Shown: positions 49,273 through 64,000 of the stretch, in pieces
Layout of the letters: each line of letters opens with the position of its first letter
How positions within the stretch are numbered: position 1 is the first letter of the stretch
Assembly: GCA_947383005.1 (NCBI GenBank)
Contig: CANDBT010000015.1
Span: forward strand, 32,085-96,084
Origin: an uncultured bacterium
GTDB lineage: Bacteria; Bacillota; Clostridia; Lachnospirales; Lachnospiraceae
Length of the DNA: 64,000 bases
Direction of reading: 5' to 3'
Notes under the pieces: generated by a model
What the model was told of the DNA's origin: nothing
Seen by the model: only the letters and a program-made list of their open reading frames with translations
Databases searched by the model: none
Made by a program: the position numbers and the translations under genes

Positions 49273-49447
49273 TATCTTAACTGGCAGTTATTGGCAAAAC
49301 GGCTGCATTATGTAATATCCTTTTTGTGGAACATGTGGAACGGGAAGGGGATTTTGTTGTTTCCAGGCAAGCGCCTGATAACATAGATACATGATCATGG
49401 CCAAACACATGGCTGACGGAAAATTTAGTGAAAAGGAGCAGATAAGT

Positions 49448-52400
49448 ATGTGGAAAAAAATTCGCAGGAACTACCGACGCCTGGTAGCGTTCTTACTGAC
49501 AGCGGTCATTGTAGGCACCAATGTCTGTGGGAATGTCGGCGTTGCGTTCGCGGCAGGGATGTCGGAAAGTGCCTTGTTCCTGGTGGATGGAGAAGAGCTT
49601 CGTGAAGCCATCCAGGAGGCGAAAGAACACAGGGAAGTGTTTTCGTTTTCGGCACTGGAGCTGGCGGCTGCCAGGAAAAGCATTCGAAACAAGTATGAAA
49701 AACTGTTAGGGAAAAAAGACGGGGAAGTTTACGAGCTGGATTTGGAAATTGACGACAGCTATGCTCCGGAAGGGGCAGCCGTACAGGTATTTTACCATGC
49801 AGGTACGGAAGATGTGGTTTTCCTGTTCCTCAATGAAACCGATATGGAAGTGGAATACCGGGTAAACATCGATGGTTATGAGACAGAGCCGGTGACGGTA
49901 AAGCCCAATACTTATAATATTGAAGAGGAAGAGGATGCGTCTTTTGGGGAAAATTATGAAGCGGCGGATATGATCGACGACGTGAAGACGGCTCCGAAGG
50001 CGGAAGTAGTGGAGACAAAAGAGGCGCCGGCCGGAGAGGAAAGCGAAGAAGCCGGAAAGGATGAGACGGCTAAAGATGCTTCCCCGGACAGTAAAGGGGA
50101 GGAAAGCAGCGCGGTGGACGAAACCCTGGCGGATGAGGAAGAAAGCCAGGAAACGGAAGCTGACAGCACTGAGGCCGCCACGGAAGAAGGTACGGAAAAA
50201 GCCGGTGAGACAGAAGCTGCTGACAAAGAGGATGAAGAAACCGATGCAGAGGAAGAGCAAGTAACAGAAACCGAAGCGGAGACGGAAACTGAAACAGAGA
50301 CGGAGCCGCAGACGGAGGCAGAGGTTGAGGATGCCGATGAAGTTTTGGATGAGCGGGAAGAGGAAGCATTAAGCAAATCCAATAGACAGGCAGCAGTTGT
50401 AGCTCTTTCCCTGGGGGACTTAGAAGAGGAAACTACAGCGGAGACAGAGGTTTCTGCTGAGGAAGAGACAGAAGCTGCTGAAACAGAAAAAGAAACCGAG
50501 GCGGAAGAGCCTGCAGAGGGTAAGACGGAAGAGGCTGCCGGAAGCGAAACAACTGAAGATGAAGAAAAAGAAACGGAAGCCGAAGCCGGGGAAACCGAGT
50601 ACGAAACGGAAGAAGAAAGCAAGGCTGAGGATACGGAAACTGAGAAATCGACGGAAGCGGAAGAAACCGAAGCAGAAGAAACGGAAAAGGATGCCACGGT
50701 AGAAGAGACGGAAGCCGAAGATAAAACAGCGGCCGGAGAAACAAAGGGCGAAGAGAAAGAAGAGATAAAGGAAAATAGTGTCGGTTCCAACAGCAGCCAA
50801 ACAGGCAGCACAGACAAGACGGACGGACAACTGTTAGAGGACGACAGCATAGAATTTCTGGGCAGACTGAAGGGGAAAGATTATGCTACAGTTACTCTGA
50901 AAAATCATGTGAACGCCAGGGCGCTCAAGGTCGCCTGGGAGGATATTGAAGAAATCATTTCTGAAGAGGAAGAAGAAATTTTTGAGTATCTGGTGGATTA
51001 TTATGTAAATCTGCCGGAGGGCGCATCGGTGGAAGGCGCCGACCGAGTGGCCGAGGGTGAAGACCTGTATTTTGCCGTAGATGTGGAAGAGGGGTATGAG
51101 ATCGCCGGCGTATATGCCAACGGCGAAGAACTGGAAGAGATTGAAGATGCGGCCGACAGGGCAAGCGCGTCCGACTGGGAGAGTTATGCCCATGTATATG
51201 TGGTTGAAGCGGTAGAAGATGACCTGACGGTTGAGGTTGAGGTTGAGGAACCGGAAGAGCTGGCGCCGGTAATTGCGGCGGCTACCTACACGGCCGAGAC
51301 GGATGATGCCGTTGTCACGGTGAATGTGCCGGACGGGGCATTTACAGAGGAAGTAGACCTGAAGGTAGCAAAGATTGAAAATGAGGATCAGGTTGAGGCA
51401 CTGAAGATTCAGGCGAACAGCCTTTTGGAAGAGGGCCAGGTTGTGGCGGAATTCCTGGCATATGATGTAAGCTTTGTTTCCAAAGAGACTGGAGACGAAG
51501 CAGAGCCTATGTATACGGTAGCAGTAAACATTCAGGTGAAGAAGCCTATGGTTTCCAAGGATACGGCTGAGACAGAAGCAATCGGAGTTTCCGTGCTTCA
51601 TCTGCCGGAAGACGGGGAAGCAAAAGTAGTGACTTCGACCGAGAAAGCAGACGAAACCGAGTTTGCCTTTGAGACAGACAGCTTTTCGCCCTATGGAGTC
51701 GCCCTGCTTTCGGCTGGTTCAGGCAATAAAGCGAAAATTGGAGATACGGAATATGAATCCCTTCAGAAGGCAATTGAGGCCAGCCAACAGGGAGATGTGA
51801 TTGTCCTGCTGGACTCCACGGATGAGAATATTACGTCCAATGGAAAAGAGTATACTCTGGATATGCAGGGCAGGATCTTGCGGTGCGGTCCGCAGAGGAA
51901 GAATGTTTTTACGGTTAATGGCGGAAATGTGACGATTCAAAACGGTACAATTACTGGCGGTGACTGGGGAAATAGAAGCGGCCAGGACGGCATTGGGCTG
52001 TACATTACTTCTGGCGCCGTTGTATCGCTGGAAAATTGTTTAATTACCGAAAACATGGGGAGAGCCAGCGGCGGAGTCCATGTTACAGGCCAAAGCGAAC
52101 TGACACTGACGGACTGCCGGATTTCCGGGAATACAGGTATTAACGGAGGCGGGGTTGTTGCCGAGAATAGCACGGTTGTTATCAGTGGCGGAAGCATTAC
52201 GGACAATATGATAAAGAATACCAATGACAACTCCAGCGGAGGAGTCATGGTGAAAAACGGAAGCCTGAGTATCGATGGCACAGAAATCAGCGATAATACC
52301 AATGGTTCCGGCGGTTTTAGCGGGCTTTATGCACTCAATAGCGTGGTGTCGCTGAAAAATACAGCATTGACAGGCAATAAGCTGAAAATTGATAATACAG

Positions 52401-55400
52401 ATCAGGTTATTTCCTTTGAAAATGTGGAAGTAAAAGATATTACGGATAGATGTGCCGCCTATGTAAAGACGAATGGGATTTTTGTGGCGGAAAACTGTAA
52501 ATTCCATGATAACGTTGGCAGAGGAGGGGCTTCTGGCTCGCCCACAAACATTCTGACTTTTGTCGGAACAGGGACAAAAACTTTGACGAACTGCCAGTTT
52601 ACCGGCAATATAGGGGATGCAGACCCTGCGGATGCAACGAACAGTTACGTTGCAGGGCCAGTGAGAATTACGGCCGGGGATGTGGTTTTGAATAACTGCA
52701 CGTTTTCCGGGAATACAAACTGGAAATACGGAACAATCTACAGCAACACAACAGGGACCGTTACCCTGAACGGATGTCAGATTACCGGCAATGACGGCGT
52801 TGATGTCGGTGGGGTTTTTGTTACAAACAGCAAGATGGACGTTCTGGATTCTGTCATTAAAAATAATACGGGAATCAATAAGGCAGGCGGTATTCAAATT
52901 GACAGAAACGCGAAATTCAGCATGACAGGGGGCGCATTGTATAATAACCGATGCGAGAAAGTCCCTGCCAACGATGTGAATATGACAAGTACTCCCTCTG
53001 CGGTAACGATTCAGAAGGCCAGCGCGATGTCAGACGGTGATGTTGATTTCAGTGATTATGTCTGGGCTAATTTAAATAACCAGATGCTTGATGGGGAACT
53101 GACTGTCAACAGTGACTTTTCGTTTAAGACCTGGAATGCAATAAAGCGTGATAAATGTGTGGCCCGGCTGAATGGAAAAGATTATGAAACCCTGACTGAG
53201 GCATTAACGGCAGCAAAGAACGGCGATACGATTGATCTGGTTGCTTCGTATATTCCGATCAAGAAAATGTTTACCGTTGATAAAGAAATTACTGTTAATA
53301 TGAACGGCTGCTATATTTTTGCGGATAACCCAGGAAATGATAAGTACACAAACACGGCGTCAGGTACGCAAGGTGTGAGCGGCGGCGTAGTTGCAAGAGG
53401 CGGTATTTTTAAAGTGGCGAAAGGCGGTACGCTTAACCTTAGTGGAAAGGGTACTATGGGAAACCGTATTATTATGGCGGGCGGCGAACTGAATTTCAAC
53501 GGCGATGTTTTTATTAAACTGTCAGGCAGTAGCAATACCGACAGCGCTCCGGTAGCTGCCGCTAATTATGATAAAGAAGTGAGAGGCGGAACGGTCAACG
53601 TCAACAGCGATATGGATTTCCTGAAAGTTTACTTGCAGGAAGGGGAATTCCGGATAAACGAAAACGCATCGGTGAATAATCTGAACCTGGAATTAAGAGC
53701 ACAGACAAGTAGAAAAACATTCGTGAAGGCAGAAATCAATGGCCCTGTTACGGAAATGACGCTTTCCCAGAGCATTTCCGGAGCCGGAAGATATGGTACG
53801 GCAGAGGAACTCCAGGATGTGACATTAAACAGCGCCATAGGATCGCTGGCATTATCTAAGGGACAGGATTCTTCTTATGGATATGTTCCTGTTACCAAAG
53901 CGGGTCCTGGGCTCAGGTTGGATTCTTTTGCTTACACGGTAACATTAACTGCGCCATATGATAAAAAAACGATGGCTAATCCGACAATACCAATGGATGA
54001 TATCATGATCATCCAGGGAGACGTTAAGGCGGAACAGATCAATCTGGCTAATGCTGACTGGAAATCCGGTTCCACTTACGACATGAAATGGTATAAATCT
54101 GATGGAGGAGATGATAAAAATTATAAATTCCTGATCACGGTTGCCGTGGGGGACAAAGGAATCGTTTTACGGAAAAACCTGCCGACCGGGGCGGCTGTAT
54201 TCCTGGATGGCAAAAATGGTAAAGATACCAATGACGGTAAGGCGATTAATACCCCTGTCAAGACTTTTTCGAAGGCAAAAGAAATACTTAAAACGAGTGA
54301 CCTGGATACCATCTATGTGATTGGAACCGTATCCGTCACCGGTACCAGCACAAGGCCGGAGAAGTGGAGTCTTGGAGACCTTGGGGAAGGAAAGACACTG
54401 AAGCGGTATGCGACCCTTCAGGAACCGATGGTGAACGTGCCATCCGGAAAGGTTCTGGAATTGGGGAATATCGTTATTGACGGCGGTAATATGGAGGTAA
54501 CTGCGCCGATTATCAAAAACATCGGTACATTGAATATTACAGCAGGCACAGTGTTACAAAATAATATCAACACTTATAATAATTTTACGCAATATGGCGG
54601 CGGAACGAAATGTGAGGGCGGCGCGGTCTGGAGTTCCGGTACGCTGAATATGAGTGGCGGAACGATTACCAATAATACGGCAGTAAGCGGCGGCGGTGTG
54701 TTCACCGAGGGTGTATTTAATTTCAGCGGAGGAGATATTACCGGCAATAAGGGCGAGGGAACTTTAAAGTTTAAAGCCGGTACAAAGTCAGCCGAATCCC
54801 CGAGCGGTGGCGGTGGCGTGTTCGTGGCCTTTAAGAGCGGAAAGATGAATATGAGCGGCGGAACGATTTCGGGCAACAGCGCGATGGCAGGCGGCGGCAT
54901 TGCTCTGGGTAATCTTTCTACTATGTATATTGGCGGTACATTGACTATGACCGGCGGCACGATTGAAGGGAATACGGCTGAGAATAAAAAGGCTGATGCC
55001 AGTGCTTATGCCGGTGGCGGTGGTATTTACGTCCAGGCAACTGGTGTCGCAGAGATTACGGGCGGTTCCATCATCGGAAACCACAGTGAAGGCGGTATGT
55101 TTGGCGGTGGCGGTATTTATGTCAATGGAGGCAAGCAGGGGTATAAGAACGGCTTGCTGAAATTGAAGAAGGTAAAGGTCAGCGAAAACAGCAGTGATGA
55201 AAGCGGCGGCGGAATTGCGGGATGCCCGAGTTCGGATGTAGAAATTTATCTGACGGATGGCGGCCTGATTCATGGGAATAACGGAGGGAAAGACGATATC
55301 TTTATTACCAGCAAGGTAGCCGGGTATTATGGAACCCCCAATGTGGATATTTCCCGTTATATGATAAATGGTGGAGTATATGGGTGGAAAGATACACAGA

Positions 55401-58192
55401 CCGGAGAGTTTGCTTCTTCCAGCGTCCTGCGCTGCGTCAGCTCCGGAAATATCCAGAGCACCTACGAAGCTCGTATCTATGCCTCGGTGGATGCGGATGA
55501 CATTACCGTGACGGATGATGATTTGAGCGTGTTCATCACCGGTAATACATCTCGCACAAGAGGTGGCGGAATCGGTACGAATGGAGATGTGGTAATCGGT
55601 ACTGAGGATGATACGGAGAAGACTCAGATTAAAGTCACCAAACAATGGAGACTGACGGAAGGTGGCCCTGTATTAACGGACGCCGAGCTGAATGAGCCTG
55701 GCAGCATTAACGATATATTTAAGTACACCAGGGTTCATTACACTCTGTGGGGCAAATATGCGACAGAGGGTGAAGATGCCTGGCAGGTGATTGACCGGGG
55801 TTCTTCCGCGGTTCAGTCTGATGGCAAGTGGTTTGTCTCCACGTTTTCCAATCTGGATCTGAAGGATGCAGCCGGAAACGAATGGGTGTATAAGGTAACA
55901 GAGGACGAAGACGATCTGTTTACAGGTGAAGTGGTAGACAATAAGGATGGAACCTGGACAGTGACGAATACTCCGGTATATTCCCTGAAGATCTCGAAGA
56001 AGGTTGTCAACACGTATGAGGATGAATATCCGGAGAAGAAGACATTTACTTTTACTGTCACCTTAAAGGATAAGGACGGGAATCTCTTCAATGGGGATTT
56101 AACGGCAGTCAACCAAAATGATGAAACCAGTACCATTTCCTTTGTGGATGGAAAAGCCAGCGTGGATCTTGCGGATGCTGAATCTGTCTGGATTAAGGGG
56201 ATTCCTGCCGGAAGTGTATATTCTGTGGAAGAGGACCCGGGAGAGGATTACGAGGCGTCTATTGTGATTACAACCCACCAGGCAGGGCGCAGCGACCTCA
56301 AGGAGGAAAATATCAGCGGACCGGCAACAGGGGATCAGACCATCTCGGTTGGCGTTAATGATGTTACCTATACGAACACTACCAAAGTGCCCCATGGCAG
56401 CTTGGTGATCAGTAAAACGGTTGCCGGCGGCGGAGATTTGGAAAAAGAGTGGAACTTTACGGTAGAATTGTTTAAAAAGAAGAAAGTGGATTCGAGCGAA
56501 GAAGATACAGAAGAGAAGTATACGAAAGAAGCCCTGAAACCGGAGACCGGAAAAGTATTCGACTTTACTTATACCAAGAAGTCAGCGGACGGGGAAGTAG
56601 TAGATACCGGCAATGTAAGGCTGAACGGCATAAAGGCTGAATTCGGGGATAAGGAAACCGGAGTATTCCAGGAGACCATTTCTCTGGCTCATGGGCAGTC
56701 AGTAATGATTGAGGGCCTGCCTGCAGGCGCCAGCTATCTGGTGACAGAAGAAGAGGCAAATGAGGGAGATTATGTAACTACCGTTACTGGAGAAGAGGGA
56801 ATTATCGTAAATAAGCAGACCAAGGAAGTCAAATTCACCAATACCGAAGTCGGCGGCCTGACAATCCATAAGACGGTGGAAGGAACAGACGGAGATAAAC
56901 AGAAGGATTGGGAATTCACCGTGAATCTGAATCTGACTGATGAAGAGGGCAATTCCCTGTTTACCGGAACAGAAGATCCGGATACGTTTATTACCTATAA
57001 GAAGTACAATGGCGTTCTGGGTACGGAGAATGAGGGAATCCTGGAGACGGGAACCATTCCTGTGAATAAGGATACAAGCAAAGCAGAATTTACCACAACC
57101 CTGAAGCATGGCGAGTATATTACCATCAGCAATCTGCCGACCGGGACAGGGTATGATGTAAGTGAAACAGAAGCAAATACTGGCAGCTATGTGACCACGG
57201 TTAATAATGAAGCTTATGTTGACTCGGCTTTAGGAAGAATCGAGATTGAGGCGGGAAAGGAAATCCAGGTTCATTTCGTCAATGATCTGCAAAAAGTAGA
57301 TATTGAAGGAAAGAAAGTCTGGGATGACGCCGGAAACCAGGATGGAAAACGCCCGCAGAGTATCACCGTGAACTTGTATGCTGATGGTGAACTGGCGGAC
57401 AGCATTTCGGTGACGGCTGCAGATGCAGAGAACAGCGACCAATGGAACTGGAAGTTTACCGGCCTGCCGAAGTATGAGAATGGGGCAGAGATCAAGTATA
57501 CGGTTACAGAAGATGCCGTGGCCGATTACAGTACGGCATATGATAATGACAATTTTGTCATTACCAACAAGTATACTCCAGGCGAAACCAGTTACACGGT
57601 ACAGAAGATCTGGTCAGATGAAGGAGATAAGGATAAACTGAGACCGAACAGCATCAGCGTGCAGTTGATGCAAAATGGTGAGACAAGAGATGAAGCGGTG
57701 ATCCTGAATGCGGAAAACGGCTGGACTTATACATGGTCGGGGCTTCCGCAGAAATCGAATGGCCAGGATATTGAATATAGGGTAGCGGAAATCGGAAGCA
57801 TAAATGGCTATACGGTAAGCTACAACTATACAGGAAATACCACGATTATCACCAACACACATACCCCGGAAAATCCGCCGGATGAGCCAGGCAAACCAGG
57901 AAGGCCTAACCGCCCAGGCGGTGGCGGCGGCAATCCGCCACGAGGCGGAGACAACCCGGGAGGGCCAGGTACTACGACTACGATCGAAACCCCGGAAGTG
58001 CCGTTGGCAAACTTCCCGCCGGAGCCGATAGTGGAATTGCCGGAGGAGATGGATGTCCCGCTGGCGGCGCTGCCAAGAACTGGAGACAGCCGCCAGGCAG
58101 GCGCGATGATGGCATTGTTCGGGATAGCAGGTCTTGGAGCCTTGTTCTCGGCCATAGCGCTTCATAAGAAAAAAGATGATCAGGAAGGCTGA
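49448..58192 (+). CDS. Giant LPXTG-anchored beta-helix adhesin
   Basis: A 2914-residue cell-wall protein. ATG 49448 has AAAGGAG upstream and starts a signal peptide (KKIRRNYRRLVAFLLTAVIV, cut near AFAAG). Residues about 178-462 are a Glu/Thr/Ala spacer. Residues 465-755 form a globular region. Beta-helix blocks follow (about 761-1238, 1241-1570 and 1661-2040) with repeats such as NMSGGTISGNSA and TLTEALTAAKNGDTIDLV. An inserted module FLDGKNGKDTNDG starts near 1583. From 2055, Cna-B-like and related pilin-type domains (ISKKV, ISKTVAGG, IHKTVEG, GKKVWDDAGNQDGKRP, VQKIWSDEGDKDKLRP) act as a stalk. A Pro/Gly spacer, LPRTG (2875-2879), a hydrophobic helix and KKKDDQEG complete the sortase signal. 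The ligand is unknown, and no sortase gene is in the window. Confidence 0.93.
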   Translation: MWKKIRRNYRRLVAFLLTAVIVGTNVCGNVGVAFAAGMSESALFLVDGEELREAIQEAKEHREVFSFSALELAAARKSIRNKYEKLLGKKDGEVYELDLEIDDSYAPEGAAVQVFYHAGTEDVVFLFLNETDMEVEYRVNIDGYETEPVTVKPNTYNIEEEEDASFGENYEAADMIDDVKTAPKAEVVETKEAPAGEESEEAGKDETAKDASPDSKGEESSAVDETLADEEESQETEADSTEAATEEGTEKAGETEAADKEDEETDAEEEQVTETEAETETETETEPQTEAEVEDADEVLDEREEEALSKSNRQAAVVALSLGDLEEETTAETEVSAEEETEAAETEKETEAEEPAEGKTEEAAGSETTEDEEKETEAEAGETEYETEEESKAEDTETEKSTEAEETEAEETEKDATVEETEAEDKTAAGETKGEEKEEIKENSVGSNSSQTGSTDKTDGQLLEDDSIEFLGRLKGKDYATVTLKNHVNARALKVAWEDIEEIISEEEEEIFEYLVDYYVNLPEGASVEGADRVAEGEDLYFAVDVEEGYEIAGVYANGEELEEIEDAADRASASDWESYAHVYVVEAVEDDLTVEVEVEEPEELAPVIAAATYTAETDDAVVTVNVPDGAFTEEVDLKVAKIENEDQVEALKIQANSLLEEGQVVAEFLAYDVSFVSKETGDEAEPMYTVAVNIQVKKPMVSKDTAETEAIGVSVLHLPEDGEAKVVTSTEKADETEFAFETDSFSPYGVALLSAGSGNKAKIGDTEYESLQKAIEASQQGDVIVLLDSTDENITSNGKEYTLDMQGRILRCGPQRKNVFTVNGGNVTIQNGTITGGDWGNRSGQDGIGLYITSGAVVSLENCLITENMGRASGGVHVTGQSELTLTDCRISGNTGINGGGVVAENSTVVISGGSITDNMIKNTNDNSSGGVMVKNGSLSIDGTEISDNTNGSGGFSGLYALNSVVSLKNTALTGNKLKIDNTDQVISFENVEVKDITDRCAAYVKTNGIFVAENCKFHDNVGRGGASGSPTNILTFVGTGTKTLTNCQFTGNIGDADPADATNSYVAGPVRITAGDVVLNNCTFSGNTNWKYGTIYSNTTGTVTLNGCQITGNDGVDVGGVFVTNSKMDVLDSVIKNNTGINKAGGIQIDRNAKFSMTGGALYNNRCEKVPANDVNMTSTPSAVTIQKASAMSDGDVDFSDYVWANLNNQMLDGELTVNSDFSFKTWNAIKRDKCVARLNGKDYETLTEALTAAKNGDTIDLVASYIPIKKMFTVDKEITVNMNGCYIFADNPGNDKYTNTASGTQGVSGGVVARGGIFKVAKGGTLNLSGKGTMGNRIIMAGGELNFNGDVFIKLSGSSNTDSAPVAAANYDKEVRGGTVNVNSDMDFLKVYLQEGEFRINENASVNNLNLELRAQTSRKTFVKAEINGPVTEMTLSQSISGAGRYGTAEELQDVTLNSAIGSLALSKGQDSSYGYVPVTKAGPGLRLDSFAYTVTLTAPYDKKTMANPTIPMDDIMIIQGDVKAEQINLANADWKSGSTYDMKWYKSDGGDDKNYKFLITVAVGDKGIVLRKNLPTGAAVFLDGKNGKDTNDGKAINTPVKTFSKAKEILKTSDLDTIYVIGTVSVTGTSTRPEKWSLGDLGEGKTLKRYATLQEPMVNVPSGKVLELGNIVIDGGNMEVTAPIIKNIGTLNITAGTVLQNNINTYNNFTQYGGGTKCEGGAVWSSGTLNMSGGTITNNTAVSGGGVFTEGVFNFSGGDITGNKGEGTLKFKAGTKSAESPSGGGGVFVAFKSGKMNMSGGTISGNSAMAGGGIALGNLSTMYIGGTLTMTGGTIEGNTAENKKADASAYAGGGGIYVQATGVAEITGGSIIGNHSEGGMFGGGGIYVNGGKQGYKNGLLKLKKVKVSENSSDESGGGIAGCPSSDVEIYLTDGGLIHGNNGGKDDIFITSKVAGYYGTPNVDISRYMINGGVYGWKDTQTGEFASSSVLRCVSSGNIQSTYEARIYASVDADDITVTDDDLSVFITGNTSRTRGGGIGTNGDVVIGTEDDTEKTQIKVTKQWRLTEGGPVLTDAELNEPGSINDIFKYTRVHYTLWGKYATEGEDAWQVIDRGSSAVQSDGKWFVSTFSNLDLKDAAGNEWVYKVTEDEDDLFTGEVVDNKDGTWTVTNTPVYSLKISKKVVNTYEDEYPEKKTFTFTVTLKDKDGNLFNGDLTAVNQNDETSTISFVDGKASVDLADAESVWIKGIPAGSVYSVEEDPGEDYEASIVITTHQAGRSDLKEENISGPATGDQTISVGVNDVTYTNTTKVPHGSLVISKTVAGGGDLEKEWNFTVELFKKKKVDSSEEDTEEKYTKEALKPETGKVFDFTYTKKSADGEVVDTGNVRLNGIKAEFGDKETGVFQETISLAHGQSVMIEGLPAGASYLVTEEEANEGDYVTTVTGEEGIIVNKQTKEVKFTNTEVGGLTIHKTVEGTDGDKQKDWEFTVNLNLTDEEGNSLFTGTEDPDTFITYKKYNGVLGTENEGILETGTIPVNKDTSKAEFTTTLKHGEYITISNLPTGTGYDVSETEANTGSYVTTVNNEAYVDSALGRIEIEAGKEIQVHFVNDLQKVDIEGKKVWDDAGNQDGKRPQSITVNLYADGELADSISVTAADAENSDQWNWKFTGLPKYENGAEIKYTVTEDAVADYSTAYDNDNFVITNKYTPGETSYTVQKIWSDEGDKDKLRPNSISVQLMQNGETRDEAVILNAENGWTYTWSGLPQKSNGQDIEYRVAEIGSINGYTVSYNYTGNTTIITNTHTPENPPDEPGKPGRPNRPGGGGGNPPRGGDNPGGPGTTTTIETPEVPLANFPPEPIVELPEEMDVPLAALPRTGDSRQAGAMMALFGIAGLGALFSAIALHKKKDDQEG

Positions 58193-58552: not shown

Positions 58553-58921
58553 TTAACACAGGATCAGCGGCTTGATCCGGGAGGGTGATGCCGGTCTTAT
58601 CTTTTTTAGAGAATCGGCAGATTTTATTGGTCTTTTTCCATAGCGGGAACCGCTGTGGTCCGGGCAGACAATTTCAACATCTGGGAGGAATTGCACATCC
58701 ATTGTGATCTGTCCCGTACCGTCACAGGCGGGGCAGCGCAGTGAGCCGGTATTATAGGAAAAATCGGCCAGTTTGTACCCGTTGGTTTTCGCATCCGTTA
58801 TGTTGGCGTACAATCGCCGCAGATCGTCCAAAACGCCGCCGTATGTGGCAACGGTAGAGCGGACATTCGTACCAATGGATGTTGCGTCAATCATATTCAC
58901 CCGCTGGATTCCATTCCACCA
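58553..58921 (-). pseudogene. Fragment of a UvrA-like excinuclease subunit
   Basis: Minus-strand reading VNMIDATSIGTNVRSTVATYGGVLDDLRRLYA, then GYKLADFSYNTGSLRCPACDGTGQITMDVQFLPDVEI-CPDHSGSRYGK, is the zinc-module region of UvrA-like proteins (the shorter drug-resistance type also fits). Everything N- and C-terminal to it is missing; after SRYGK the match is lost. It abuts the kinase fragment on the opposite strand. Confidence 0.85.
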
Positions 58922-59220
58922 TATCTGAATGTCAGGTGAAATTAGACGAGCAGATATTTTTCCGTATTGTCGAGAATATCTTTTCTAATGCCATTCGATA
59001 TGCTAAAGGCAAGGTGAATTTTGGTTACTCCCTTACCGATGGGATGCTTATGATCACCATATCGGACGATGGCAAAGGCTTTTCAAGGGCAATGCTTTGT
59101 AAAAAGAACACCTTTCTTTATTCTGAGGATAAAACAGGAGAGTATATGGGCATGGGATTGGCTACAAGCCGCATCCTTAGTTAGAAACACGGCAGAAGTT
59201 TAGAACTTTCAAATTCGTAA
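58922..59220 (+). pseudogene. Sensor histidine kinase C-terminal fragment with nonsense codon
   Basis: VKLDEQIFFRIVENIFSNAIRYAKGKV is the N-box of a HATPase domain, ITISDDGKGFS the G1 box and MGMGLATSRIL the G2 box. In the same frame, a TAG at 59182-59184 replaces a residue, after which KHGRSLELSNS, the usual end of such kinases, is still legible up to a TAA at 59218-59220. The sensor and dimerisation parts are missing. Confidence 0.85.
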
Positions 59221-59855: not shown

Positions 59856-60202
59856 TAACTTATTCTGCGAAAATCCTTCCAAAATCAGGTAAAAGTAAGG
59901 CTTTTAAGCCGTATGACCACGAATTTGACCATAAAACAAATTCATCATTGCCTGTCATTCCTTTCGATTTCAAAGGTGTTTTTCGTAATTTTGACCATGA
60001 AAGTGACCATAAAAACCTTATTTCTTTCAAATTTTGCCCTGATGAAATATCAGCCACCCGGAATAATCCCTGTTACAGCCATCTGAAACTGCCCCCAAAT
60101 CAAAAAATCATTGCGGTTCCTTATTAAGTATGATAAAATAACATTCGGTATAGTTGATGACGCAGAAAGAATATCTGTTTTTTCTTTTCGCAGAATAAGT
60201 TA
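59856..60202. repeat. 347-bp segment with 18-bp perfect inverted ends
   Basis: TAACTTATTCTGCGAAAA (59856-59873) and its exact reverse complement TTTTCGCAGAATAAGTTA (60185-60202) bound this AT-rich stretch. The left end itself can form a TTTTCGCAGA/TCTGCGAAAA hairpin with 59845-59854. Inside are four TGACCA sites in two pairs, each pair 12 bp apart (59914, 59926; 59992, 60004). No gene is recognised inside. Confidence 0.7.
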
Positions 60203-60287
60203 ATCTATGACAACTGAATTCCGCCTGGACATGGGAACTCACTTGTCGCTGGTCTGGGCTTATCCTGCAAGTCAGGATGGAGTTTAC

Positions 60288-61622
60288 ATGAAAGAGCATA
60301 AAAATACGATATATAAGACCATTTACCAATACAATCAGGTTCCCGTTCCTGCTTCTGACATGAAGCGGCTGCTGGAGATTGCCAGGGACTGCAAAGTAGT
60401 TAAAAATTATGTTTATGACCGTTATGGCGGGATTGGCGGCCTGCTAAAAATCTATCCAGGCTATACGGTGCAGAACGAGATGACCAAAAGCGGGCTGAGA
60501 GAAAAGCTGGGTCTTCCATCCATATATTTTTACTTGTCCATTTTTGATGCTTTGGGGGATATTAAAAGCCAGTGGACATATGCAAAAAAACGGGTGGAGA
60601 AAAATATCAGGAATAATCCGAATCTGTCAGCAGAGGAACGGCATTACCTGCGTTTTGTCATGAAGCAAAGTCAATGTTTTGAATCAATTCTTGTGGGGGG
60701 AGAACTGAAGCTGGCGGATGGTTGGAGCGAGGGGTATGCGGCTATATGTGCGGGCGTTGATACTCACAGGCTGGATCAATATCTGCGCAGGCAGGTGCGG
60801 CGGCATTTGGATAAGCCCCATACTGACGCGGCGGAGGGGTTTATTGTCTCTCCGAAAGGATATCGGTATGCGGATCACGGGATCTATCTTACAATGAAAG
60901 AAAGCCGAAAGAGGCTATTCATTCCATTGACTGACAATAACCAGTACAAGACGCAAATTTATGTCCGTCTCTGCCCAGACAAAGAAAGAATCACACTCAA
61001 CATTCCTATTGAGGTAAGACAGCGGCATCCAAAGGGGTATAGCGGGAAATCGGGGCTGGCAATGGGGCTTAATTGTATGTTTGTGACAGACCAGGGCAGG
61101 GTCTATGGGGAGAAATATTTAGAGTATCAGTCTGCCATCACGGATTATGTGCGCGAAAGGCTTCCACGCCACCAGAGAAACTCCAGAAACAATCCTGGCA
61201 AGAAAAAATATAATGCGGGGAAGACAAGGCTGGAGAAGATGATGCATGATTATGTAAATGCGGAAATTAATCGGATGTTGGAAACGGAAAAGCCAGGCGT
61301 TATTTATATTCCTAAATTCCCGGCAAAGTCAAAGGCAGGTTTTAACCGGAGAGTAAACGCGACAATCAATATGTGGCAGAAGGGATTTATAAAAAGCAGG
61401 TTGTCCCAGAAATGCAGGGAACGGTCTATTGAATTGGTGGAAGTATTTGGTAAAGGAATTAGTACCCAGTGCAGCCGTTGCGGCGCGGATGGGGTGAAGG
61501 AGGATGGGGTATTTCGCTGCTCAGCCTGTAAAATGGAGCTTCCAGAAAGGCAAAATACCGCAGGGAATGTCCTGAGAAGAGGACAGGAATCAAAGAAGGG
61601 AATAGAGGCAGGTTCATTATGA
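60288..61622 (+). CDS. TnpB-like (IS200/IS605 OrfB) protein lacking RuvC acidic residues
   Basis: A 444-residue protein. ATG 60288 is chosen for the GGATGGAG 5 bases upstream; ATG 60207 in frame would extend into the inverted-repeat end. The C-terminal half follows TnpB: GLAMGLNCMFVTDQGRVYG aligns with the RuvC-I strand, NNPGKKKYN and DYVNAEINRMLETEKP with the bridge region, VIYIPKF with RuvC-II, and the zinc ribbon is C395xxC398 and C411xxC414. The expected catalytic residues are replaced: Ala258 for the RuvC-I Asp, Pro342 for the RuvC-II Glu, and ERQNTAGN for DRDxNAA. Known TnpB proteins are RNA-guided nucleases; this one may bind RNA and DNA without cutting. No TnpA is present. Confidence 0.8.
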   Translation: MKEHKNTIYKTIYQYNQVPVPASDMKRLLEIARDCKVVKNYVYDRYGGIGGLLKIYPGYTVQNEMTKSGLREKLGLPSIYFYLSIFDALGDIKSQWTYAKKRVEKNIRNNPNLSAEERHYLRFVMKQSQCFESILVGGELKLADGWSEGYAAICAGVDTHRLDQYLRRQVRRHLDKPHTDAAEGFIVSPKGYRYADHGIYLTMKESRKRLFIPLTDNNQYKTQIYVRLCPDKERITLNIPIEVRQRHPKGYSGKSGLAMGLNCMFVTDQGRVYGEKYLEYQSAITDYVRERLPRHQRNSRNNPGKKKYNAGKTRLEKMMHDYVNAEINRMLETEKPGVIYIPKFPAKSKAGFNRRVNATINMWQKGFIKSRLSQKCRERSIELVEVFGKGISTQCSRCGADGVKEDGVFRCSACKMELPERQNTAGNVLRRGQESKKGIEAGSL

Positions 61623-61711: not shown

Positions 61712-61752
61712 AAAAGACGGCGTTAGAAGCCAGTTCTTTAGGGAACTGGGTA
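61712..61752 (+). other. IS200/IS605-type right-end hairpin, possible guide-RNA scaffold end
   Basis: GTTAGAAG-CCAGTTC-TTTAGG-GAACTGG (stem 61730-61736 with 61743-61749) is the type of hairpin found at the right end of IS605-family elements, following TnpB. In such elements it also ends the omega-RNA scaffold, so a guide would begin just after it (around 61750, TATTGGGTATGCC). The rest of 61623-61991 has no gene; several further short palindromes are visible. Confidence 0.55.
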
Positions 61753-61991
61753 TTGGGTATGCCAAGACCCAGGGAACTCTCATGTGGGCTTTCTGCCATG
61801 GGAGAAGTACCGGGAGCGAAGCGGGCAGAATATAACCATAAAGTGAAATACCATGTATGGGAAACTGTCAGCATCACCCGATGAGGTGACCAAATATGTC
61901 TTATTAAAAGGCAAGCACGGCACTTGGCTCAGTGTCACGGAAATAAAGGAGAGCCTGTGGAAATAGGTAAACCATAGCGAAAGAGGACTAT

Positions 61992-62720: not shown

Positions 62721-64000
62721 ATGGGAAGGCATATAAAAAAAGAATTATTGAAGACGATAGATTTAATGATAGAAGCAAACCTTACCATCCGTGATATGAA
62801 CCAGAATGACCGGTCTGTGATTATGGATAACCTTGCACAATCCCAGGAGGCAGCGCTGAGGATAGGTAATGCTCTGGAAAGCTTGGAGGGAAAGGGAAGC
62901 CAAACCGTTTTCCGGCTGGAGGAATACTGTGAGAGTTTGTATTTGATGAGTCAATCCGTAGAAGATCCCGCGCAGTATGTGAAATGCTCGAAGATTATCC
63001 AGAAGCAATTAGCTTGCATAAGGGAGGAAATCTACCATGGGCTGTCTGATGAAAAGTGGGAGATCGTATTCCTGCCTTACAAGGCTTCCATGTGGGATAG
63101 TTTAGAAAGTGTGTGGAGGGCGGCGTCGCTGGATAAGCAGTGTGATGTCTATGTGGTTCCTATTCCATATTTTGAAAGACGTTCTGACGGTACGTTGGGT
63201 GAGATGCGTGATGAAGGCGACTTGTATCCGAGGTATGTGCCGATTACTTCGTGGAAGGAATATAACATGATGGAAAGGCATCCGGATATCATATATATCC
63301 ATAACCCATATGATCAATATAATTATGCGACCAGCGTCCATCCGAATTTTTATTCCGTTCAATTAAAGCGATATACAAATATGTTGGTTTATATACCTTA
63401 TTTTGTTGCTACGGCGCATCGCGTCGGAGAAGATTTTTGTACTTTGCCAGGGGTATTTTTTGCAGACAAAGTGATTGTAGAGGACGATGATATAAGAAAA
63501 ATTTACATAGATGAATTACGAAAGTTCGAAAAGGAAAACGGTTGCGAAGGAAAATTTGGAAAGGCAGAAAAGAAATTCCTGTCTCTGGGAAGTCCTAAAT
63601 TTGACAAAGTGCTCTATACGAAAAGAGAACAAGTATCGATACCGTCAGAATGGGAGCCGTTTCTGTACGCCGAAGATGGAACGCGCAAAAAGGTTGTATT
63701 GTACAACACGACATTGGATGCTCTTTTGAAAGATGAAGGATATATTAAAAAAATCAAAGCCGTTCTCCATATGTTTTATGAAAACAAGGATGATATCACG
63801 CTTTTATGGCGTCCCCATCCGTTGAATATGGCTGCCATGCAGTCGGTACGCCCTCAAAAGCTTATGGAGTATCAGACAATCGTTAAGGATTACAAAGAAG
63901 AAGGATATGGAATTTATGATGATACTCCGGATATCCACAGGGCGATCGCGATCAGCGACATCTATTACGGAGACTGGAGCAGCGTCGTGTCATTATATGA
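62721..64000 (+). CDS. CDP-glycerol glycerophosphotransferase-like protein (5' part)
   Basis: The gene starts at ATG 62721 behind AAGGAG, 12 bases after the cytidylyltransferase, and runs off the window after 426 codons. A helical head (residues 1-105) precedes a transferase domain beginning WEIVFLPYKASMWDSLESVW. LVYIPYFVATAHRV, LSLGSPKFDKVL, VVLYNTTLDALL, TLLWRPHPLN and ISDIYYGDWSSVVSLY follow; the last is the acceptor/donor-binding motif (DxxxxDxSS) of TagB/TagF-type enzymes, in a variant. It probably polymerises or decorates a surface polymer. Confidence 0.7.
   Translation, partial: MGRHIKKELLKTIDLMIEANLTIRDMNQNDRSVIMDNLAQSQEAALRIGNALESLEGKGSQTVFRLEEYCESLYLMSQSVEDPAQYVKCSKIIQKQLACIREEIYHGLSDEKWEIVFLPYKASMWDSLESVWRAASLDKQCDVYVVPIPYFERRSDGTLGEMRDEGDLYPRYVPITSWKEYNMMERHPDIIYIHNPYDQYNYATSVHPNFYSVQLKRYTNMLVYIPYFVATAHRVGEDFCTLPGVFFADKVIVEDDDIRKIYIDELRKFEKENGCEGKFGKAEKKFLSLGSPKFDKVLYTKREQVSIPSEWEPFLYAEDGTRKKVVLYNTTLDALLKDEGYIKKIKAVLHMFYENKDDITLLWRPHPLNMAAMQSVRPQKLMEYQTIVKDYKEEGYGIYDDTPDIHRAIAISDIYYGDWSSVVSLY

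What the first reader, a model, noticed from the sequence alone, without database searches (positions are those of the whole stretch)
60288..61622. TnpB-like protein with all three RuvC acidic positions substituted
The RuvC-I strand reads GLAMGLN instead of GxDxG, the RuvC-II strand IYIPKF instead of a V-E-D/N type, and the C-terminal motif ERQNTAGN instead of DRDxNAA, yet the zinc ribbon, bridge region and overall length are preserved and the frame is intact over 444 codons. Nuclease-dead TnpB derivatives used as RNA-guided repressors (TldR) are known; this could be an independent case. No TnpA is near.
Basis: partly seen in the sequence, partly recalled or inferred. Interest (0 to 1): 0.75.

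Follow-up and report, generated by a model that had tools for sequence, protein, structure and literature searches.

The report
Dead TnpB behind flipping promoters
Lachnospiraceae, bacteria common in the gut, carry a family of TnpB proteins that have lost their DNA-cutting residues, many of them encoded with a structured guide-like RNA behind a DNA switch that flips a promoter in front of cell-surface genes, which suggests an RNA-guided regulator of surface variation.

Summary
Window 60288-61622 encodes a 444-aa TnpB homologue without RuvC acidic residues; none of 97 aligned sequences keeps any of the three, while the zinc ribbon stays, and dN/dS of 0.05-0.10 shows that the protein is used. 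After the gene lies a conserved structured RNA (window 61716-61905; 17 of 24 pairs with changes on both sides) ending in an 11-nt tail just after a proposed pseudoknot, the place of a guide. The tail is more alike between loci of one genome than between genomes at matched protein identity; the scaffold is not. In 50 of 72 loci (0 of 177 controls) the gene follows inverted repeats that enclose a segment, often with a strong promoter; glycerophosphotransferase-like or other surface genes often follow. Best reading: a TldR-like, RNA-guided DNA-binding regulator made when a surface operon is switched on. RNA and DNA binding are inferred, and no convincing target was found; a resemblance to codons of the glycerophosphotransferase-like gene is only suggestive. 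CsrA-linked TldRs with Hin switches are a published precedent; I found this clade in no paper I could search.

The parts
60288..61622 (+). nuclease-dead TnpB-like gene, 444 aa (an upstream in-frame ATG lies at 60207)
61053..61067 (+). RuvC-I strand, GLAMG in place of GxDxG (residues 256-260)
61296..61322 (+). RuvC-II strand, GVIYIPKFP; Pro in the Glu column (residues 337-345)
61470..61529 (+). zinc ribbon, C395, C398, C411, C414 invariant in the sequences aligned
61545..61568 (+). RuvC-III, ERQNTAGN; Arg421 in the Asp column (residues 420-427)
61716..61905 (+). conserved structured RNA (scaffold plus tail), six helices with covariation
61753..61756 (+). UUGG, 5' strand of the proposed pseudoknot
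   Evidence: matching changes in three distant loci, read by eye
61890..61893 (+). CCAA, 3' strand of the proposed pseudoknot, just before the tail
61895..61905 (+). 11-nt tail TATGTCTTATT in guide position; identical in the second copy of this genome
59845..59873 (+). left inverted-repeat arm of the proposed switch
60185..60213 (-). right inverted-repeat arm (86% complementary over 29 nt, 311 nt between the arms)
59874..60184 (.). proposed invertible segment, no recombinase gene inside; a 65% match to the recombinase of locus L026 lies within the repeats of the second copy of this genome (contig C5)
60111..60139 (+). weak promoter-like site TTGCGG-N17-TAAAAT; not better than shuffles of this segment
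61992..62708 (+). IspD/TarI-type D-ribitol-5-phosphate cytidylyltransferase (NF001183 over cut-off)
62721..63998 (+). CDP-glycerol glycerophosphotransferase-like gene, runs off the window
   Evidence: PF04464
63392..63402 (+). TATACCTTATT in the LVYIPYF codons of the glycerophosphotransferase-like gene; resembles the tail with two mismatches

Best explanation
A domesticated, nuclease-dead TnpB clade works as an RNA-guided DNA-binding regulator inside phase-variable surface operons. Shown by sequence: loss of the RuvC triad across the family, purifying selection, a structured RNA encoded after the gene, a nearly constant 11-nt tail in the place of a guide, and in most loci tested a segment between inverted repeats in front, with promoters and with both orientations seen. 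Inferred: (1) the recombinase flips the promoter; (2) only in the ON state is the mRNA made that carries protein, RNA and surface genes; (3) the protein binds the RNA scaffold as TnpB binds its omegaRNA; (4) the 11-nt tail guides it, in trans, to a site shared by the loci of that genome, where it blocks transcription without cutting. What the shared site is remains open; candidates are the paralogous surface operons themselves, either at their own tail-coding DNA or in the glycerophosphotransferase-like gene.
For: Triad lost in all 97 aligned sequences and, with other residues at RuvC-I, in relatives of 34% identity. dN/dS 0.05-0.10 in 25 of the 27 pairs computed (the 25 most alike of 181 pairs plus two with the window; two gave no value). 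RNA: 97.4% of cells paired against 81.8% shuffled, 17 of 24 pairs with changes on both sides, 0 of 500 shuffles as high. In the own genome and 30 relatives the RNA model finds 10 RNAs in 7 genomes, each next to a family gene (only the best 99 candidates per genome were scored). Pseudoknot UUGG:CCAA before the tail with matching changes in L142, L141 and L200 (by eye). Tail mismatches within genomes 0.91 against 1.70 in identity-matched pairs between genomes, 22 pairs, 18 genomes, 0 of 3000 draws as low; positions 12-42 show no effect; scaffold control 3.05 against 3.04. Switch: inverted repeats in 50 of 72 loci, 0 of 177 controls; the 365-bp segments of L030 and L032, two loci of one MAG, lie in opposite orientation at 93% identity, with TTGACA-N17-TATAAT facing the gene in one and away in the other.
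Against: No convincing target. In the own genome the 13-mer with up to one mismatch has 37 matches against 34 for the reversed pattern; near the loci 22 against 17. In eight genomes the perfect 11-mer has 40 matches, 10 of them the loci themselves, 30 others against 21 for the reversed pattern; among those others no site was shared by more than two genomes, and the single-copy genome G005 (86% complete) has none. The resemblance to the glycerophosphotransferase codons does not track the own locus (2.295 against 2.300 mismatches) and misses at tail position 4 in 38 of 44. Several loci keep only part of the proposed pseudoknot. RNA or DNA binding, TAM and repression are untested. The pairs are not corrected for shared ancestry. 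The control windows lie downstream and are mostly coding. The window's own segment has no good promoter, and 22 of 72 loci showed no repeats at this threshold.
Confidence: 0.52

Rival explanations
1. The protein binds its RNA only in cis, in the leader of the operon mRNA, and controls transcription elongation, processing or translation of the surface genes; there is no DNA target and the tail is a signal for another factor.
For: 73 of 79 named loci have a gene of 150 aa or more in the same direction within 1.2 kb after the TnpB-like gene, so the RNA can lie in its leader; no DNA target found; no terminator-like site on this strand between gene and operon in the window.
Against: Tail variants agree between separate loci of one genome, which fits a partner acting in trans; a purely cis signal need not do that.
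Confidence: 0.25
2. The protein-RNA complex acts on the DNA switch itself, for example biasing the recombinase.
For: The gene lies directly behind the repeats (50 of 72), often beside a recombinase gene (phage integrase family in 24, resolvase in 5 of 69 nearest upstream genes).
Against: Two different repeat types go with one RNA tail; no tail excess in the 450 bp upstream (75 loci: 0 perfect, 3 with one mismatch against 1.65 expected).
Confidence: 0.1
3. A decayed transposon gene carried along without function.
For: No catalytic residues; patchy presence (10 of 24 genomes of the genus, own one included).
Against: dN/dS 0.05-0.10, conserved RNA, recurring place behind inverted repeats.
Confidence: 0.03
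4. Still a nuclease, with acidic residues supplied from other positions.
For: Nothing direct; the structure could not be predicted to exclude it (tool off).
Against: All three catalytic columns are replaced in the sequences aligned.
Confidence: 0.03

Closest known systems
CsrA-associated TldRs of Oscillibacter and Flavonifractor (PMC13418256; sections 11 and 12 read, other passages seen)
   Same: Nuclease-dead TnpB in gut Clostridia, guide RNA downstream, several loci per genome, invertase gene and about 120-bp invertible promoter upstream, surface-structure genes
   Different: Here no CsrA or flagellin pattern in the flanks; sugar-polymer or secreted-protein genes instead; tyrosine- as well as serine-recombinase genes upstream; one nearly constant 11-nt tail instead of guides with known fliC targets. 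Their sequences were not on hand, so kinship of the proteins was not tested.
Prophage fliC-associated TldR of Enterobacter (same paper)
   Same: Nuclease-dead TnpB placed beside an alternative surface protein gene
   Different: Here bacterial contigs; in phage records only three remote transposase hits; one IMG/VR contig (L200)
TnpB of IS200/IS605 and IS607 elements
   Same: Fold family by profile, zinc ribbon, RNA on the 3' side of the gene
   Different: No catalytic triad; conserved tail rather than a free guide; element ends and TnpA were not looked for
Cas12m (start of the abstract of PMC10442227 seen in search listings)
   Same: A Cas12 relative that silences without cutting double-stranded DNA
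   Different: Cas12m has an altered RuvC and belongs to a CRISPR type
UpxY/UpxZ and LoaP type regulators at the head of polysaccharide operons (recalled)
   Same: Regulator as first gene of variable surface operons
   Different: Unrelated proteins; no guide RNA

Membership tests
TldR (TnpB-like nuclease-dead repressor) | TnpB homology | tested here: met
   PF07282 over cut-off; NF040570 E 7.7e-15 but below cut-off; PDB profile hits
TldR (TnpB-like nuclease-dead repressor) | RuvC catalytic residues lost | tested here: met
   0 of 97 keep any of the three
TldR (TnpB-like nuclease-dead repressor) | guide RNA encoded next to the gene | tested here: inconclusive
   conserved structured RNA with a guide-position tail; binding untested
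TldR (TnpB-like nuclease-dead repressor) | guide matches a host target next to a TAM | tested here: inconclusive
   no convincing target; guide length and TAM unknown
TldR (TnpB-like nuclease-dead repressor) | represses transcription without cutting | not testable with these tools
   needs an experiment
CsrA-associated TldR clade | csrA and fliC within 3 kb | tested here: not met
   no match to a CsrA or flagellin sequence pattern (patterns recalled) in 1.49 Mb of flanks (no positive control)
CsrA-associated TldR clade | invertase gene and promoter inversion upstream | tested here: met
   here mostly tyrosine recombinases (24 against 5 resolvases of 69)
invertible promoter (inverton) | inverted repeats around a promoter, both orientations seen | tested here: met
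   for the family: 50 of 72 against 0 of 177; L030/L032 flipped; strong promoter-like sites in 24 of 33 short segments against 4.6 in base-composition shuffles. For the window: repeats met, promoter weak
IS200/IS605 transposon | TnpA gene and element ends | not tested
   no TnpA model was run; among nearest upstream genes recombinases lead (first 25 of 85 families shown)

The most novel reading that the evidence does not exclude
RNA-guided exclusion among phase-variable surface operons: the locus whose promoter is flipped ON makes a dead TnpB with a guide shared by the loci of the genome, and this complex silences the sister operons (or limits its own), so that surface polymers are expressed in an ordered, mutually dependent way. 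In this reading the target is carried by each operon itself, as the tail-coding DNA or as the conserved Pro-Tyr codons of the glycerophosphotransferase-like gene.
Probability: 0.22. Interest if true: 0.88.

Novelty: new variant of a known kind. Interest (0 to 1): 0.72.

Why it matters
Surface variation in gut Lachnospiraceae is likely to shape contact with host, phages and neighbours, and I know of no account of how several switchable loci in one cell are kept in order (from memory, not a search). A guide-carrying TnpB remnant in such operons would be a second setting for RNA-guided transcription control besides flagellin, and the nearly constant tail makes the target question directly testable in cultured strains that carry the family (Schaedlerella arabinosiphila, Acetatifactor muris, Sporofaciens musculi).

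Tried and rejected
Target searches that led nowhere: tail 13-mer in the own genome; cis search in the loci (22 hits against 17 for shuffled tails); 16 nt after the tail (84 matches with up to three mismatches against 62 for the reversed pattern, no second match better than two mismatches); 11-mer in eight relatives. Two coincidences were set aside: the start of a zinc-ribbon gene (MPYCPKC) in two of the first six genomes, and a TRAP-binding-protein gene in the own genome and S. arabinosiphila.

Resemblance to the glycerophosphotransferase-like gene: found post hoc. Of nine tests (three regions, three mismatch levels) two, both in the 3 kb after the RNA, exceeded all 40 shuffles: one mismatch allowed, 18 hits against 8.5 (largest shuffle 15); two mismatches, 136 against 117. 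One of the 18 is the locus's own tail (L072), and ten lie at one codon stretch, LVYIPYF (my count), some in near-identical loci (L068, L080), so they are not independent. Inside the TnpB-like gene the tail is rarer than shuffles (24 against 47). With tail columns permuted, 1 of 300 permutations reached the observed best mean of 2.30 mismatches over 44 genes. Distant L140 has a tail that differs from its gene's NPYD codons at three third-codon positions only. Against it: no covariation with the own locus; of the three such genes in the own genome none matches its tail better than two mismatches at this stretch. I keep it as suggestive.

Closer intact TnpB: apart from family members and the fragment L143 (E 1.6e-22), the profile's best hits in 295 genomes of the order are at E 5e-11 or worse; except L149 and L150 their motifs were not examined. 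No active relative with an alignable RNA was found. CsrA-TldR sequences were not on hand. Plasmid and phage records hold only remote relatives (three records each).

My notebook contains one slip: 12 of 24 genus members positive; one search shows 10 of 24.

Full report
What is there. The ORF at 60288-61622 (444 aa) is as described. It matches PF07282 above the cut-off and the guided_TnpB model below it. The own genome (4.99 Mb, 136 contigs) holds a second copy of 73% identity on contig C5, and a fragment of another TnpB C-terminus with DRDINAA. In 61 genomes (own and 60 relatives) 11 have the family, 10 of 24 in the genus, with one to four matches each, some of them fragments. A scan of species genomes gave 219 relatives, of which the best 80 were kept, so the sample leans to close relatives. 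Most titles name Lachnospiraceae or other Clostridia; a few say only 'bacterium'.

Nuclease loss. In the alignment of 97 sequences none keeps the Asp, Glu or Asp of RuvC. The columns were checked against one intact TnpB, L150. Relatives at 34% identity (L139-L141) have lost them too, with His in place of the first Asp. In 27 pairs (the 25 most alike of 181, plus the window with its two nearest sampled relatives) dN/dS is 0.05 to 0.10 where it could be computed, in 25. So the loss is old and the protein is kept.

The RNA. After the stop codon lies a conserved RNA: ACGGCATTAGAAG, hairpin, GTATTGGGTATGCCAGGACC, a helix with a GAA/GUA internal loop, GGGAGCGAAGC, two more hairpins, then CCAA and TATGCCTTATT. 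Of 95 loci with enough DNA, 84 showed core and tail by pattern, 7 more had the core and a tail with more changes, read by eye, and 4 had no core (one of these, L017, is a coordinate slip of mine, and L092 and L097 lie near contig ends). On 56 sequences, chosen for short inserts and distinct, a structure of 24 pairs that I drew by eye gives 97.4% paired cells against 81.8% in shuffles, and 17 pairs with changes on both sides. Rfam has no match there at E up to 1 (its one hit lies elsewhere and below threshold). The RNA model finds no copy away from a family gene in 31 genomes, with 99 candidates scored per genome. UUGG in the second conserved stretch can pair with CCAA before the tail; three distant loci change both sides (L142 UUAG:CUAA, L141 UCGG:UCGA, L200 GUUG:CAAC, by eye). 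Against it, some loci near the window read ACAA and keep three of four pairs, and L030 and L037 (UUAG with ACAA) keep fewer.

The tail as a guide. Between genomes the tail is conserved for 11 nt and then varies freely. Within a genome, 22 pairs of loci from 18 genomes (23 pairs less one of 94% identity) differ by 0.91 of 11 positions, against 1.70 for pairs of equal protein identity from different genomes (0 of 3000 draws as low). The effect is absent from positions 12-42 and from the ten positions before the tail; a scaffold control also shows none, 3.05 against 3.04. In 14 of 18 genomes the difference has this sign. The draws do not correct for shared ancestry, and seven tails were read by eye. 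The simplest reading is a partner that the loci of one genome share.

The switch. In front of the gene lie inverted repeats in 50 of 72 loci (window and named loci with at least 700 bp upstream), 0 of 177 control windows from downstream of the same loci. One type (TTTCGCAGAAT..ATTCTGCGAAA and similar) encloses about 0.2-0.4 kb, or 1.1-1.6 kb, mostly with a tyrosine recombinase gene; the other (CCAAAAAGTGTACTTTTTGG and similar) encloses about 90-116 bp. In 18 long segments the longest ORF, mostly the recombinase, runs with the TnpB-like gene in 11 and against it in 7; L030 and L032 of one MAG carry the same 365-bp segment in opposite directions. Of 33 short segments 24 have a strong promoter-like site against 4.6 in base-composition shuffles; the better site points toward the gene in 7, away in 23, equal in 3. 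The window has the repeats but a poor promoter and no recombinase inside; its sister locus on C5 has one inside its repeats.

The operons. Of 79 named loci 73 have a gene of 150 aa or more in the same direction within 1.2 kb. By a sequence motif 32 of 73 are glycerophosphotransferase-like, and at least seven more look alike at the N-terminus (by eye); Pfam sees only 6. The rest include nucleotidyltransferases, other sugar enzymes, and a small membrane protein followed by a secreted protein. In the window a ribitol-phosphate cytidylyltransferase and a glycerophosphotransferase-like gene follow. Nearest upstream genes: phage-integrase family 24, resolvase 5 of 69.

Targets. None is established; the searches and their nulls are listed under Tried and rejected. 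The best hint is the codon stretch LVYIPYF of the glycerophosphotransferase-like gene, with one distant parallel at NPYD, but own-locus covariation is absent.

What is known. The Enterobacter and CsrA-linked TldRs are described in PMC13418256 (sections 11 and 12 read; other passages seen). [quoted passage not shown] Wiegand 2024 and Altae-Tran 2023, cited there, are not held, so I cannot exclude that this clade is listed in them. Searches with TnpB/nuclease-dead/TldR (4 of 4 papers listed), TnpB/catalytically inactive/RNA-guided transcription/exapted (20 of 101), TnpB/phase variation/invertible (3 of 3), TldR alone (15 of 253), invertible promoter/Lachnospiraceae/recombinase (none), and names of dead TnpB (20 of 44) showed no description of it in the titles and starts of abstracts listed.

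Noticed in passing
window 49391-58192 (+): 2933-aa surface protein with acidic repeats and an LPRTGD-type C-terminal sorting signal (by eye), upstream of the repeats.
   Followed up: no
window 58879-59184 (+): Short ORF with a histidine-kinase ATPase domain (PF02518), apparently a gene remnant.
   Followed up: no
L001 1471-1707 (own genome, contig C21): C-terminal fragment of a TnpB with DRDINAA, the only PF07282 hit of this genome besides the two copies.
   Followed up: partly
L028, L058, L070, L026, L153 and others, downstream of the RNA: Recurring pair: a 170-190-aa one-helix membrane protein followed by a secreted protein of about 330-440 aa; perhaps a surface fibre system.
   Followed up: partly
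L143 (G221, contig C67): 214-aa fragment of a remote relative that keeps the RuvC-II Glu (IKEDL) but has Asn in the RuvC-III Asp column; a possible half-way stage.
   Followed up: no
L200 (IMG/VR contig): Family member at 43% identity with a serine-recombinase-like gene, inverted repeats, RNA and a glycerophosphotransferase-like gene on a contig classed as viral.
   Followed up: partly
L142 (G178): Member that lacks the NPGRKKY stretch but keeps zinc ribbon and RNA; its tail reads GGTGCCCTATGAA.
   Followed up: partly
L212 (S. arabinosiphila) and L109 (own genome): TRAP-type binding-protein-like genes that share the 11-mer TATGCCTTATT at the codons of MPYLF; taken as chance.
   Followed up: partly
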